Below, piece by piece: positions 11,017-17,497 of a stretch of DNA of 64,000 nt. The stretch lies in the NCBI RefSeq assembly GCF_000720115.1, contig NZ_JOIR01000014.1, positions 1 through 64,000 on the forward strand. The letters are read 5' to 3'. A program made the position numbers and the translations under genes. This DNA comes from Streptomyces sp. NRRL F-2580 (GTDB taxonomy: Bacteria > Actinomycetota > Actinomycetes > Streptomycetales > Streptomycetaceae). Position 1 is the first letter of the stretch. Each line of letters starts with the position of its first letter. Below the pieces are notes generated by a model that was not told the origin of the DNA, did not search any database, and saw only the letters and a list, made by a program, of their open reading frames with translations.

Positions 11017-13047
11017 TCAGAAAGCGGGAGCGCCTGACACCACCGGTGCGACCGTGCGGTCGCCGAAGGCCGTCCACGGCCGCCACCCGCCGCTCGGCCG
11101 GTCCTGGACGCGGGTGCGCACGCGGCCCCCGGCGGTGACGGCGAAGACGTGCGTCCGCCCGGTGGAGTCGAGCGCGGCCGTGGGCGTGGCGGCGAGCCTG
11201 ATGCCGGGCTCGCCGAACTCCCCGCCGGGAGCCCAGCCACCGCCCGGGGTGGTCTGCCAGCGGTGGCCGAGCCGGGCGCCGCCGGGCGCCAGGGAGAACG
11301 CCTCCAGACGGCCGTCGGCGTTGGCGGCGAACGCCGGGGCGGCGGCGCTCCAGCCGGACAGGGGCAGCCACTCGTCCCAGCCGCCGCTCGGCACCGACTG
11401 CCGCCGGGAGAAGGTCCCCATGCCCGAGGGTCCGATCGCCGCGACGGTGAGCCGGCCGCTGCCGTCCGGGGCCACCCGCGGTGCGGCGCCGGCCGTGGTA
11501 CCGAAGCGCTGCCAGGCGTCGCTCCAGGCACCGCCCGGGGTCTCCTGCCACCGGTGGTGGATCCCCGCGCCGCCGGGCGAGAGGGCGAACACCTCCAGCC
11601 GCCCGTCGGCGTTCGCCGCGACCACCGGCGGAGCGCCCGCGGCCCCGCCGAACCCGGGCTCCCACGGGTCCCAGGCCAGGGATCCCGGTGAACCCTGCCG
11701 ACGCCGGGCGACGGAGGCGCCGCCGGGACTGAGGGCGAACGCCTCCAGCCGGCCGCCGGCGTCGCGGGCGACGGCGGGTGCCGCGCCGGCCGGGCCGCCG
11801 AACTCCTCCCACTCGTACCAGCCGCCGTCCGGCCGCTGCACCCGGTGGTGCAGGTTGACGCCCTCCGGGGCGAGCGAGAACACCTCCAGCCGGCCGCCGG
11901 CGTTGCGGCCGAGCGTGGGGACCGCACCGGCCGGCCCTCCGAAGGCCTCCCACGGCGACCAGGTGTCGGTGTCCGGGTCGAGCTGGACGCGCCGCAGCAT
12001 CGAACGGTCGGAGGCGTCGAGCGCGAACACCGTCAGGCGGCCGCCGACGTCGAGTCCGGCCACCGGGTTGTCCGGGCTCTGCCACGGCGGTGGGGTGTCC
12101 CGCCAGTGCAGGGGCGCCACGTGCAGCCCGTTGCGGAACCAGCCCGCGGCGCTGGCGTACCACGCCTCCCCGTCGGCGACCACCTCCACGGCGTGACCGG
12201 CCACATGGCCCGCGTAGCCGGCGAGGTCGAAGCGGAACGGGTCCCGGGACGCCAGCACGTCCGTGCCCTCGTAGCCGTTGCGGGGCCCGATGAACAGGTA
12301 GTACCAGCCGTCCCGTTCGACGACGTACGGCGACTCGGTGACCGAGACGGTCGTGTCCGTCGTCGCGTCGGTGAAGGCGACGCCCGGCTCGCTCCAGTGC
12401 AGCAGATCGGCGGACCGCCGGTGGGCCACGACGTGGTGGCCGCCCGCGCCCGACAGTTCGGTGTAGTACATGACCCACTCGCCGCCGACCCGCAGCACCA
12501 TCGGGTCGCGCGCCGCGAGCCCGCGGAACAGCGGGCCGGACGGCTCGCGCGTCCAGGTGAACAGGTCGGCCGACGTGGCCAGACTGATCGCGGCACCGGT
12601 GCGGCCGCCCGCCGCGTAGAACATCCAGAACCTGCCGCCCGCCTCGACGACGTGGGGCGCCCACAGGTGTTCCTCGCCGAAATAGGACGGGTCGAGGGTC
12701 AGCGCGTCGGCGTGGGTGGTCCACGGCCCGTTCGGGCTCGGCGCGGAGGCGTGGGCGAAGGAGATCTCCCCCGTGCTGTCCGGGGACTCTCCGCGCGGCG
12801 CGCTGTCACCGACGATGCTGAACAGGTGCCAGCGGCCCCGGGCCTTGAGCAGGGTGTGGTCGTTGAGGTAGCGCGGGCCGTTGGCGGTCGACGGGTCGTA
12901 GACGTACGCGAAGGGGCCCGCGCCGATCCACCGAGGGGGCGGCACGGCGTCGGCGGCGCCGGCCGCGGCCCGGCCGGCGTCCAGGAACGGGAGTGCGGCC
13001 GCCCCGGCGGCACCCTTCAGCAGGTTCCGTCGGCTGATCGGAGGCAT
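11017..13047 (-). CDS. Tat-exported GH43-like glycosidase with C-terminal seven-repeat lectin-like propeller
   Basis: I start at ATG 13047, where GGAGAG lies upstream and the N-terminus MPPISRRNLLK is a Tat signal; the frame continues 16 codons further. The 676-residue protein has two propellers. Residues ~55-330 look like a GH43/62-type five-bladed fold with candidate acidic residues in YLNDHTL, RDPMV and TESPYVVE. Residues ~345-676 hold seven repeats of about 47 residues built on GGRLEVFSL...HHR.Q...GGW..W..FGG, as in Photorhabdus-lectin-like (PLL) propellers. The likely substrate is an arabinose- or xylose-containing glycan. The neighbouring M23 gene is upstream in the same direction, separated by a hairpin. 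Confidence 0.8.
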   Translation of the reverse strand: MPPISRRNLLKGAAGAAALPFLDAGRAAAGAADAVPPPRWIGAGPFAYVYDPSTANGPRYLNDHTLLKARGRWHLFSIVGDSAPRGESPDSTGEISFAHASAPSPNGPWTTHADALTLDPSYFGEEHLWAPHVVEAGGRFWMFYAAGGRTGAAISLATSADLFTWTREPSGPLFRGLAARDPMVLRVGGEWVMYYTELSGAGGHHVVAHRRSADLLHWSEPGVAFTDATTDTTVSVTESPYVVERDGWYYLFIGPRNGYEGTDVLASRDPFRFDLAGYAGHVAGHAVEVVADGEAWYASAAGWFRNGLHVAPLHWRDTPPPWQSPDNPVAGLDVGGRLTVFALDASDRSMLRRVQLDPDTDTWSPWEAFGGPAGAVPTLGRNAGGRLEVFSLAPEGVNLHHRVQRPDGGWYEWEEFGGPAGAAPAVARDAGGRLEAFALSPGGASVARRRQGSPGSLAWDPWEPGFGGAAGAPPVVAANADGRLEVFALSPGGAGIHHRWQETPGGAWSDAWQRFGTTAGAAPRVAPDGSGRLTVAAIGPSGMGTFSRRQSVPSGGWDEWLPLSGWSAAAPAFAANADGRLEAFSLAPGGARLGHRWQTTPGGGWAPGGEFGEPGIRLAATPTAALDSTGRTHVFAVTAGGRVRTRVQDRPSGGWRPWTAFGDRTVAPVVSGAPAF

Positions 13048-13075
13048 GAGTCTCTCCAGAGGGGACCGTGTCGCC

Positions 13076-13099
13076 GGCCGTGCCCGTGCGGGCACGGCC
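13076..13099 (-). terminator. Hairpin between the M23 and GH43-like propeller genes
   Basis: GGCCGTGCCCG pairs perfectly over 11 bp with CGGGCACGGCC around a 2-base loop. It lies in the 88-base gap between two same-strand genes, so it may end or attenuate transcription, separating GH43 expression from the esterase/peptidase pair. Confidence 0.6.
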
Positions 13100-15654: not shown

Positions 15655-15835
15655 TGTGACCTCCTGGTCGGGAGTCTGACGATGCGTCGGGGATCGCGGG
15701 CCGGCCTGCCGATCCGGCCGACACCGTCGTCACGTTAGGACCGGGCCCACCGGGCGGGGCATCCGGAACGATCCGGAGTGACACGCCGGTTCCGTCGCCC
15801 TTTCATCGAGGTGCTCCACGACAGAAGGGAAGACA

Positions 15836-17497
15836 ATGGCGATGGATGGTTTACGTCGCGCGTTCGCAAGACTGGCTTTCGTGGCCGGTACATGGGCGTT
15901 GGTCATCGGCATGACCGCTCCGGTCGCCCTCGCCGCACACCCGCCCGTTCCGGGCCCGGGCGATGACCGGTTCGGCGTCTCCCACTACTTCGGCGGCCCG
16001 CAGGGTCTCGCCATCCCGACCGTGCCGTGTGATCCGGCCGGTCCGTCGGCCGCCGACGCCATCATGGCCGACCAGCTCAACCCGCAGTTGCACGCGAAGA
16101 TGGCCGGCTACATGAACGCCTACAAGGTGTCGTGCGCGCGGATGGTCACCCAGGCGGTGAAGGACCGGGGGCTCAACCAGCGGGCGGCGGCCATCGCCAT
16201 CGCCACGGTCATCGTGGAGACCAGCATCAACAACTACTCCCAGGCCGTCGACCACACCAGCCTCGGGCTGTTCCAGCAGCAGGACTGGTGGGGTACCCGG
16301 GAGGAGCGGCTGAACCCGGCGTACGCCACCAACGCCTTCTTCGACCGGGTGGACCAGCTGTATCCGGGCGGCTCGTGGAACAACGAGGCGATCGGCGAGG
16401 TGTGCTGGCACGTCCAGCAGCCGAGGGAGGACCTGCGCGGCCTGTACGAGGTCGAGGCGGCCGACGCGATCGTCATCGCCAACGCGCTGTGGTCCGGTAC
16501 GGGCGGCGGCCCCAGGCATCCGTACGCCTCGGGCCGGGTGGTGTCGGGGCGGTCCGCGGACGGACGGCTGGAGGCCTTCGCGGCCGGCGCCGACGGCGTG
16601 TACCACTCGTGGCAGACGGCGGTGAACGGCGGCTGGTCGCAGTGGCGGTTCGAGGGCGGCCCGCGGGACGCGCAGCTGGCCGTGGCGTCCAACGCGGACG
16701 GCCGGCTGGAGGTGTTCGCGCTGTCGGGCAGCACCTTCGACCACATGTGGCAGACCGCGCCCGCCGGAGGCTGGTCCGCCTGGGCGAACTTCGGCGGCGG
16801 CGGGTACCGGCTGACCGCGGGGAACAACGCCGACGGGCGCATCGAGGTGTTCGCGTCCAACGCCAACGGCGTGTTCCACCGCTGGCAGACCGCGCCCAGC
16901 GGCGGTTGGGCCGAGTGGGAGGGGGCCGGCGGCGGCCCGGCCAACGCCCGGCTCGCCATGGAGAGCGCACCCGACGGGCGCCTTGAGGTGTTCGCGCTCT
17001 CGGACGCGACGTTCGAGCACCTGTACCAGACCGGGGTCAACGGCGGCTGGTCCGCCTGGGAGAACTTCGGCGGCGGCGGACGCGACCTGGCCACCAGCCA
17101 CAACCAGGACGGCAGGCTGGAAGTGTTCGCTTCGAACGCCAACGGTGTCTTCCACCGCTGGCAGACCAGCCCGAGCTCGTGGTCGGAATGGGCCGGCATG
17201 GGCGGGATCCCCCACGCCGAGCTGACCGTCTCGCGGTCGGCCGACGGCCGGGTCGAGGTGTTCGCGATCAACGCCAGCACCGCGAGCCACGCCTGGCAGA
17301 CCCGTCCGAACGCGCCGTACTCGGAGTGGGAGACCTTCGGTGGCGGCGGCACCGAGATAGGGGCGGCCAACAACGCCGACGGCCGCATCGAGGTGTTCGC
17401 CACCAGCCACGCCGGCGTCTTCCACCGGTGGCAGACCGGCTTCGCCACCTGGTCGGAGTGGGGCTGGCTGAACGATGCCGGCCCCGCGGTCAACTAG
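15836..17497 (+). CDS. Secreted transglycosylase-like protein with seven-repeat lectin-like propeller
   Basis: This 553-residue protein has a signal peptide (hydrophobic 14-32, cleavage after ALAA) and GAAGGGAAG before the ATG. Residues ~45-220 form a lysozyme/lytic-transglycosylase-like domain: AIAIATVIVETSI contains the probable catalytic Glu and SLGLFQQQDWWGT matches the conserved core. Residues ~230-553 are seven PLL-like repeats (SADGRLEAF, NADGRLEVFA, NADGRIEVFA and so on), nearly the same module as in the M23 protein on the other strand. It diverges from the esterase across a 181-base gap that probably holds both promoters. The likely target is peptidoglycan; catalysis is inferred. Confidence 0.82.
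   Translation: MAMDGLRRAFARLAFVAGTWALVIGMTAPVALAAHPPVPGPGDDRFGVSHYFGGPQGLAIPTVPCDPAGPSAADAIMADQLNPQLHAKMAGYMNAYKVSCARMVTQAVKDRGLNQRAAAIAIATVIVETSINNYSQAVDHTSLGLFQQQDWWGTREERLNPAYATNAFFDRVDQLYPGGSWNNEAIGEVCWHVQQPREDLRGLYEVEAADAIVIANALWSGTGGGPRHPYASGRVVSGRSADGRLEAFAAGADGVYHSWQTAVNGGWSQWRFEGGPRDAQLAVASNADGRLEVFALSGSTFDHMWQTAPAGGWSAWANFGGGGYRLTAGNNADGRIEVFASNANGVFHRWQTAPSGGWAEWEGAGGGPANARLAMESAPDGRLEVFALSDATFEHLYQTGVNGGWSAWENFGGGGRDLATSHNQDGRLEVFASNANGVFHRWQTSPSSWSEWAGMGGIPHAELTVSRSADGRVEVFAINASTASHAWQTRPNAPYSEWETFGGGGTEIGAANNADGRIEVFATSHAGVFHRWQTGFATWSEWGWLNDAGPAVN

What the first reader, a model, noticed from the sequence alone, without database searches (positions are those of the whole stretch)
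11017..17497. Exported hydrolase cluster sharing one lectin-like propeller on three different catalytic domains
Three neighbouring genes encode unrelated N-terminal domains (GH43-like, M23 peptidase, transglycosylase-like), each followed by seven PLL-like repeats, and a Tat-exported esterase is translationally coupled to the peptidase. Together they could remove acyl groups, cut peptides and cut glycan on the same surface, with the propeller as the common targeting part. I know of no described system with this composition; it could be a predatory, antibacterial or wall-remodelling secretome.
Basis: partly seen in the sequence, partly recalled or inferred. Interest (0 to 1): 0.85.

Follow-up and report, generated by a model that had tools for sequence, protein, structure and literature searches.

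The report
Secreted wall-cutting enzymes sharing address tags
A Streptomyces gene cluster encodes several probably exported enzymes that look able to cut bacterial cell walls, most of them carrying the same kind of sugar-binding propeller as an address tag, next to a sensor kinase and its likely partner protein; in some related strains the same cluster carries a different shared tag, which suggests a re-targetable, regulated wall-attack (or wall-remodelling) system.

Summary
Three neighbouring Streptomyces genes carry seven-bladed PLL-type propellers behind a GH43, an M23 and a lysozyme-like domain; the last is related to GH184 muramidases, catalytic Glu kept, rather than a transglycosylase. 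A Tat-type esterase overlaps the M23 gene by four bases. A genome search found PLL propellers only here. An FHA ortholog lies within 6 kb of M23-PLL in 22 of 24 Streptomyces genomes. Where close FHA orthologs occur without M23-PLL, 12 of 14 regions still hold wall hydrolases, with LGFP repeats, SH3-like or other tails. M23 and SLT3 propellers are 91% identical within a genome, 78% between genomes. The GH43 propeller takes no part in this and keeps the site aromatic in 2 of 7 blades. Best reading: a kinase-controlled, exported wall-lytic operon whose enzymes share an exchangeable targeting module; I favour other actinobacteria over self as target, but that step is inference. PLL, M23, GH43, GH184 and LGFP are known parts; the operon-level set with swapped tags was not found in the papers searched.

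The parts
8460..9908 (-). Ser/Thr protein kinase (482 aa), one likely membrane helix (by eye), extracytoplasmic C-terminal domain of unidentified fold
   Evidence: Pfam Pkinase E 1.1e-31; recurrent in 50 of 82 PLL loci; D174, K176, N179 and D192 invariant in 24 of 24 aligned
9905..10714 (-). FHA-domain protein with a helical C-terminal part that could be a winged helix (269 aa); its stop overlaps the kinase start by 4 bases
11017..13047 (-). pA: Tat-type signal, GH43 domain, divergent seven-bladed PLL-type propeller (ORF opens at 13095; likely start 13047)
   Evidence: candidate triad D79/D197/E254 invariant in 17 of 17 aligned (numbers from the 13095 start)
13136..14668 (-). pB: M23 peptidase followed by seven-bladed PLL propeller (510 aa)
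14665..15654 (-). pC: Tat-type PF00756 esterase (329 aa), no propeller; GTGA overlap with pB
   Evidence: Pfam E 1.2e-48; PDB ferulic acid esterase E 3.2e-17; found beside PLL-type loci and LGFP-type loci
15836..17497 (+). pD: GH184-type muramidase domain (about residues 59-225, E128) followed by seven-bladed PLL propeller (553 aa)
   Evidence: profile vs GH184 structures 8b2h E 4.5e-19 and 8b2e E 1.6e-13; propeller
15655..15835 (.). divergent intergenic region between pC and pD, probably holding their promoters
   Evidence: gene orientation; no sigma-70-type site found by scan

Best explanation
This is a kinase-controlled, exported, multi-enzyme cell-wall-lytic operon. Shown by sequence: the enzymes' families, the shared propeller, the conserved neighbourhood, and a different C-terminal module in some relatives. 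Inferred: (1) the propeller binds a wall glycopolymer and concentrates the M23 peptidase and the GH184-type muramidase (and, in relatives, SLT3 and NlpC/P60-like enzymes) on the same surface; (2) the esterase takes acyl groups off the glycan so that the muramidase can work, and the GH43 trims a side polymer; (3) the membrane kinase senses an envelope signal and phosphorylates targets read by the FHA protein, which would control the operon; (4) the target is the wall of competing bacteria, most likely other actinobacteria, rather than the producer's own.
For: Besides GH43 (56 loci), every N-terminal class found on the propeller in 82 non-redundant PLL loci is a peptidoglycan-enzyme family: M23 53 loci, pD-type muramidase 37, SLT3 27, NlpC/P60-like 18, GH25 1. 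An FHA ortholog lies within 6 kb of M23-PLL in 22 of 24 genomes among 295 Streptomyces. Of 14 genomes with a close FHA ortholog but no full-length M23-PLL, 12 have wall hydrolases there: 4 with LGFP repeats, 6 M23 with SH3-like tails, 2 other M23. One hybrid locus (L037) holds kinase, LGFP muramidase, the esterase, M23-PLL and GH43-PLL. M23 and SLT3 propellers are 91.0% identical within a genome vs 77.8% between genomes (18 loci, 0 of 5000 permutations); NlpC and muramidase propellers 78.7 vs 70.4% (7 loci, 1 of 5000). Catalytic residues are kept in pA, pB and pD. Patchy occurrence (24 of 295) and position in the outer fifth of the chromosome in 9 of 10 near-complete chromosomes fit an accessory role. 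Precedent: an umbrella-toxin beta-propeller binds a wall polymer of target Streptomyces (PMC13274773, passages); LGFP repeats occur in a mycobacteriophage and a Tsukamurella-phage lysin (PMC3314691, passages).
Against: No binding, cutting or killing was measured. No immunity gene was recognised. The producer is itself an actinobacterium, so self-targeting is not excluded. The GH43 propeller does not share the site residues or the homogenisation, so not all enzymes share one address. M23 and muramidase propellers differ by about 35% and show only a small within-genome excess (64.6 vs 64.1%, 20 of 5000 permutations). M23 and SLT3 genes are adjacent, so gene conversion by proximity could explain the 91% without selection. 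Two of 24 genomes lack a near FHA ortholog, and two of the 14 FHA regions without M23-PLL show no wall hydrolase (L117, L124). In nine loci from other genera (L066-L071, L074, L080, L109) no FHA or kinase relative was found. Distant FHA homologs (20 loci at about 50% identity, kinase beside 19) have none of the lysin reference domains near by; only small SH3-like matches in three.
Confidence: 0.52

Rival explanations
1. Self-wall remodelling: an autolysin set under kinase control that opens the producer's own wall during growth, branching, sporulation or envelope stress; the tag matches the strain's own wall polymer and is swapped when that polymer changes.
For: Membrane kinases that control wall hydrolases are common (recalled). 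Three kinases next to distant FHA homologs carry an extracytoplasmic SLT-like stretch (Pfam scores below cut-off), which may point to sensing of one's own envelope. Concerted change of tags also fits tracking of one's own polymer. No immunity gene was recognised.
Against: Only 24 of 295 Streptomyces have the M23-PLL gene; 9 of 10 near-complete chromosomes have it in the outer fifth.
Confidence: 0.3
2. Scavenging secretome: enzymes that digest dead bacterial, plant or fungal material for food, with the propeller as a generic carbohydrate-binding module.
For: GH43 hits arabinanases in the PDB and the esterase hits ferulic acid esterases; the enzymes are probably all exported.
Against: All partner classes other than GH43 are peptidoglycan enzymes, which have no role on plant or fungal walls that I know of (recalled); no sugar-uptake gene is among the seven neighbour families found in more than four loci (the acylase-like one named by eye).
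Confidence: 0.12
3. No system: a sticky propeller was duplicated in tandem onto several exported enzymes, and adjacency alone keeps the copies alike.
For: Homogenisation is strong between adjacent genes and weak for M23 and muramidase.
Against: Esterase, FHA protein and kinase have no propeller yet recur with the cluster, and loci with the same esterase, FHA protein and kinase can have LGFP in place of PLL.
Confidence: 0.06

Closest known systems
PLL family of seven-bladed lectins (Photorhabdus; Pfam PF26607, shown as 'PLL-like beta propeller' in names)
   Different: here the propeller is fused behind enzymes; the Photorhabdus proteins are lectins for fucosyl and O-methyl sugars (PMC12203525, passages); the GH43 propeller has lost most site aromatics
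GH184 muramidases
   Same: pD N-terminal domain is homologous (E 4.5e-19); the catalytic Glu and the family's Asp align with residues invariant in 11 of 11
   Different: the describing paper says bacterial members lack a wall-binding domain (PMC10394673, passages); here bacterial relatives carry PLL or LGFP modules
Streptomyces umbrella toxin particles (UmbA/B/C)
   Same: secreted by Streptomyces, beta-propeller lectins used for recognition of a wall polymer (PMC13274773, passages)
   Different: UmbA4 carries a trypsin-like domain and works in a particle; here the propeller sits on the hydrolase itself; no trypsin-like domain was found in the three PLL proteins
Modular endolysins of mycobacteriophages
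   Same: mix of M23, amidase, GH25 and transglycosylase domains with C-terminal modules, LGFP in one case (PMC3314691, passages)
   Different: chromosomal operon of several enzymes with one shared module and a kinase/FHA pair
Kinase with FHA regulator, as PknH/EmbR of mycobacteria (pairing recalled)
   Different: FHA is N-terminal here and a DNA-binding part is only suggested by helices; Pfam finds no SARP domain in this protein

Membership tests
PLL lectin family | seven-bladed propeller homologous to PLL | tested here: met
   sequence; fold (pD only folded); blades read
PLL lectin family | conserved aromatics of the sugar sites | tested here: inconclusive
   aromatic before the blade Gln 7 of 7 in pB and pD but 2 of 7 in pA; class means 6.1-6.7 vs 1.5; exact site residues were not mapped on a structure
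PLL lectin family | binding of fucosyl or O-methyl sugars | not testable with these tools
   needs a sugar-binding assay
GH184 muramidase | sequence homology to characterised members | tested here: met
   8b2h E 4.5e-19, 8b2e E 1.6e-13 with an 11-row profile
GH184 muramidase | catalytic Glu (Glu41 of KsGH184, Glu125 of TtGH184) | tested here: met
   aligned with pD E128, invariant in 11 of 11 (residue numbers from PMC10394673, counted along the printed alignments)
GH184 muramidase | muramidase activity | not testable with these tools
   needs an enzyme assay
GH43 | Pfam GH43 and Asp/Asp/Glu triad | tested here: met
   E 2.1e-14; candidate triad D79, D197, E254 invariant in 17 of 17; triad assigned by motif position, recalled; the usual WAPD motif reads WAPH
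Peptidase M23 | Pfam M23 with zinc ligands | tested here: met
   E 4.3e-28; HNGVD and HLH motifs present; motif meaning recalled
FHA domain | FHA fold | tested here: met
FHA domain | phosphothreonine-site residues | tested here: inconclusive
   R39 and N73 invariant, S56 nearly so, but the His of the usual SxxH motif is Ala (A59 invariant) (roles recalled)
FHA transcription regulator | DNA-binding domain | tested here: inconclusive
   helices at residues 156-253 in the model; no confident match
Umbrella toxin component (UmbA) | trypsin-like domain on the lectin protein | tested here: not met
   no such Pfam hit in the three PLL proteins

The most novel reading that the evidence does not exclude
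The operon is a re-addressable attack system: one regulatory core (membrane kinase, FHA protein, esterase) carries a set of wall-cutting enzymes whose address module is exchanged as a set (PLL lectin propeller, LGFP repeat, SH3-like), so that a Streptomyces lineage can change which neighbour's wall it lyses; the LGFP version, and perhaps the GH43 and esterase, aim at walls of mycolic-acid bacteria, and the kinase senses contact with the neighbour's wall.
Probability: 0.18. Interest if true: 0.9.

Novelty: new variant of a known kind. Interest (0 to 1): 0.72.

Why it matters
If true, Streptomyces hold a regulated protein arsenal in which one targeting module is shared by, and exchanged across, a set of wall enzymes. 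That would give matched lysins with natural targeting parts, a bacterial role for GH184-type muramidases with binding modules, and a testable candidate for how Streptomyces sense and act on neighbouring bacteria. Direct contact with mycolic-acid bacteria is known to switch on Streptomyces metabolism (PMC9282665, abstract start in the listing), and PMC4636228 in the same listing describes a search for the inducing factor.

Tried and rejected
Chance or artefact: rejected (PLL matches only in these three genes of the assembly) and by the conserved loci. Pfam for the pD N-terminal domain: none; phmmer gave only a weak hit (E 0.0094); a profile search settled it. Kinase extracytoplasmic domain as SH3-like, like the M23 tails: compared by hhalign, no support (probability 0.3%). 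Foldseek and VIA rows shown for pD were propellers, so the fold search says nothing on the muramidase domain. The winged-helix reading of the FHA protein's C-terminus stays unproven. LGFP NlpC relatives in viral contigs: none confirmed. Upstream motifs: 10-mers shared by up to half of the esterase upstream regions (17 of 34) and about a third of the FHA ones (18 of 49), not separated from common descent; of these CGGACTGACA and GGAACGATAC are absent from window 8001-18000, while CTTCGGCCAC occurs once, at 10792, upstream of the FHA gene; promoter scan empty.

Literature: 'PLL-like beta propeller' is in 0 papers of the library; 'LGFP' with 'Streptomyces' and 'peptidoglycan' is in 2, neither by title or abstract start about such an operon; no listed title (20 of 83; 10 of 3,770; 10 of 37; 8 of 12) describes it. 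Papers outside the library were not searched.

Dropped rows and weak spots: 12 duplicate loci merged; one broken row left out of the propeller profile; propellers outside 300-420 residues and duplicates left out, whose sets were 52 M23, 55 GH43, 36 muramidase, 26 SLT3, 17 NlpC; a partial FHA match of G224 is not among the 14 genomes, though its locus (L151) has an LGFP NlpC gene and a kinase piece. Genes in loci were called by a home-made codon-usage caller, so absences are weaker than presences; 11 of 82 loci held PLL fragments. Distant wall hydrolases would be missed by the E 1e-5 comparison. One search lists 120 of 2,715 and 120 of 212 relatives. The Fisher test printed compares unlike counts and is not used.
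Full report
What is there. The window is Streptomyces: it lies in an 8.4-Mb, 156-contig assembly whose nearest protein relatives are named Streptomyces. pA has a Tat motif, a GH43 domain (Pfam E 2.1e-14) and a C-terminal propeller; pB an M23 peptidase (E 4.3e-28) and a propeller; pC is a PF00756 esterase (E 1.2e-48) with a Tat motif and no propeller; pD has an N-terminal domain that Pfam does not name and a propeller. The Tat hits are just below cut-off; signals of pB and pD are read by eye. 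pC and pB overlap by GTGA. pA probably starts at 13047, where its homologs start.

The pD enzyme. A profile of pD-type and LGFP-type lysozyme-like domains hits the two GH184 muramidase structures 8b2h (E 4.5e-19) and 8b2e (E 1.6e-13) and nothing else below E 0.7. Counting along the printed alignments, the catalytic Glu41/Glu125 that the GH184 paper names (PMC10394673, passages) meets pD E128, invariant in 11 of 11 rows. The paper says bacterial members lack a wall-binding domain; these carry one.

Neighbourhood. In 295 Streptomyces genomes, 24 including the own one have a full-length M23-PLL match (E at most 3.5e-232). Fetched regions of the 23 others show a GH43-PLL gene in 18, propeller remnants only in 2 more, the esterase ortholog (over 70% identity) in 12 and the pD ortholog in 10. 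With 70 further loci (of 186 relatives) and the window there are 94 loci, 82 after merging duplicates; their PLL genes fall into six N-terminal classes: GH43 56 loci, M23 53, pD-type 37, SLT3 27, NlpC/P60-like 18, GH25 1 (named by eye), with fragments in 11. Pfam names SLT_3 (E 1.3e-36); NlpC/P60 (E 0.00099) is below its cut-off. These loci were chosen for having a PLL gene. The common order is esterase, M23, (SLT3), GH43, FHA protein, kinase. Outside Streptomyces, Amycolatopsis, Actinocrispum, Actinokineospora and Herbihabitans loci have NlpC, muramidase and GH43 in a row; no FHA or kinase relative was found in nine loci of other genera.

Swapped modules. A search of 392 Streptomyces genomes with the LGFP NlpC protein gives 9 with matches. 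Of these nine loci, seven have the esterase ortholog beside the LGFP gene and seven a kinase or kinase piece in the region; in L120 a run of N joins two genes. L037 is a hybrid: kinase, LGFP muramidase, esterase, M23-PLL, GH43-PLL. In G078 the LGFP modules of its two enzymes are 86% identical, against 66-72% to the modules of a second enzyme in seven other genomes.

Concerted change. M23 and SLT3 propellers of one genome are 91.0% identical, those of different genomes 77.8% (18 loci, 0 of 5000 permutations; orthologs 78%). Muramidase and NlpC: 78.7 vs 70.4% (7 loci, 1 of 5000). M23 and muramidase: 64.6 vs 64.1% (23 loci, 20 of 5000). GH43 pairs show no excess. Adjacent genes show the effect most, so gene conversion by proximity is a sufficient cause; selection for one address is compatible, not shown.

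Control. Twenty loci with distant FHA homologs (50-55% identity) have a kinase beside 19 of them but no match to the PLL, LGFP, M23, muramidase, SLT3, NlpC or GH43 reference domains at E 1e-5; three have small SH3-like matches. Three of the kinases there (L138, L140, L149) have an extracytoplasmic SLT-like stretch (SLT_2 E 0.00005-0.0003, below cut-off). I infer that the pair is a wider envelope-linked family whose close branch goes with wall lysins.

Mechanism. Most likely the kinase reads an envelope signal, the FHA protein relays it, and the operon exports enzymes that the propeller concentrates on a wall polymer; the esterase deacylates glycan, the muramidase and M23 cut strands and bridges, the GH43 trims a side polymer. 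Families, residues and neighbourhood are shown; ligand, substrate, signal and target are inference. For targeting others: patchy occurrence, place in chromosome arms (9 of 10 in the outer fifth, binomial P 0.0017; assumes contigs run end to end), and the umbrella-toxin precedent in which a UmbA beta-propeller binds a teichuronic-acid-like wall polymer of target Streptomyces (PMC13274773, passages). For self: kinase control, no recognised immunity gene. PLL lectins bind fucosyl and O-methyl sugars (PMC12203525, passages), and one PDB entry shows PLL2 with an O-methylated PGL-1-derived disaccharide (title); that PGL-1 is mycobacterial is recalled. LGFP is proposed as wall anchor in Corynebacterium and occurs in a mycobacteriophage and a Tsukamurella-phage lysin (PMC3314691, passages). 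This makes mycolic-acid bacteria a fair but unproven target.

Novelty. All parts are known families; PF26607 'PLL-like beta propeller' and M23-PLL names are already in databases (120 of 2,715 relatives listed). The operon with kinase/FHA and exchangeable shared module was not found in the papers searched. I file it as a new variant of a known kind, the modular exported peptidoglycan hydrolases.

Noticed in passing
L138:5586-7103, L140:8018-9550, L149:7894-9519: Ser/Thr kinases beside distant FHA homologs carry an extracytoplasmic SLT-like (lysozyme-fold) stretch, which may be a peptidoglycan sensor (Pfam scores below cut-off).
   Followed up: partly
L136, L140, L141, L143-L145, L147-L150: Next to the distant FHA/kinase pairs a recurring exported protein (GVTAGVAVFDRQTGTFTEQ..FRSASVVKLL) looks by eye like a beta-lactamase-type serine hydrolase; not tested.
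   Followed up: no
L037:11085-12134 and neighbours: Hybrid operon with an LGFP-tagged muramidase beside PLL-tagged M23 and GH43 genes and the same esterase.
   Followed up: partly
L027:14674-15282, L077:11061-12104, L051:12891-15320, L031:1662-2747: Extended clusters around pD orthologs also hold a cutinase-like protein (PF01083), a second PF00756 esterase, a large acylase-like protein (by eye) and a SARP-type regulator; none of these families has a member called in the window.
   Followed up: partly
L121:6360-6833, L120:6363-6839, L041:11926-12423: Small exported proteins that look by eye like free ricin-type lectins sit near the kinase or lysin genes.
   Followed up: no
upstream of the FHA gene in PLL loci; window 10792: 10-mers such as AACGATACTC (17) and CTTCGGCCAC (18) occur in that many of 49 FHA upstream regions and in 0 of 825 other upstream regions; the second is in the window at 10792, the first is not. 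Operator, promoter part or common descent.
   Followed up: partly
3651-7913: Large protein (1420 aa ORF) with weak GDSL-lipase and golvesin-C hits, both below cut-off.
   Followed up: no
18053-19561: DUF4246 protein (E 3.2e-119), probably unrelated to the cluster.
   Followed up: no
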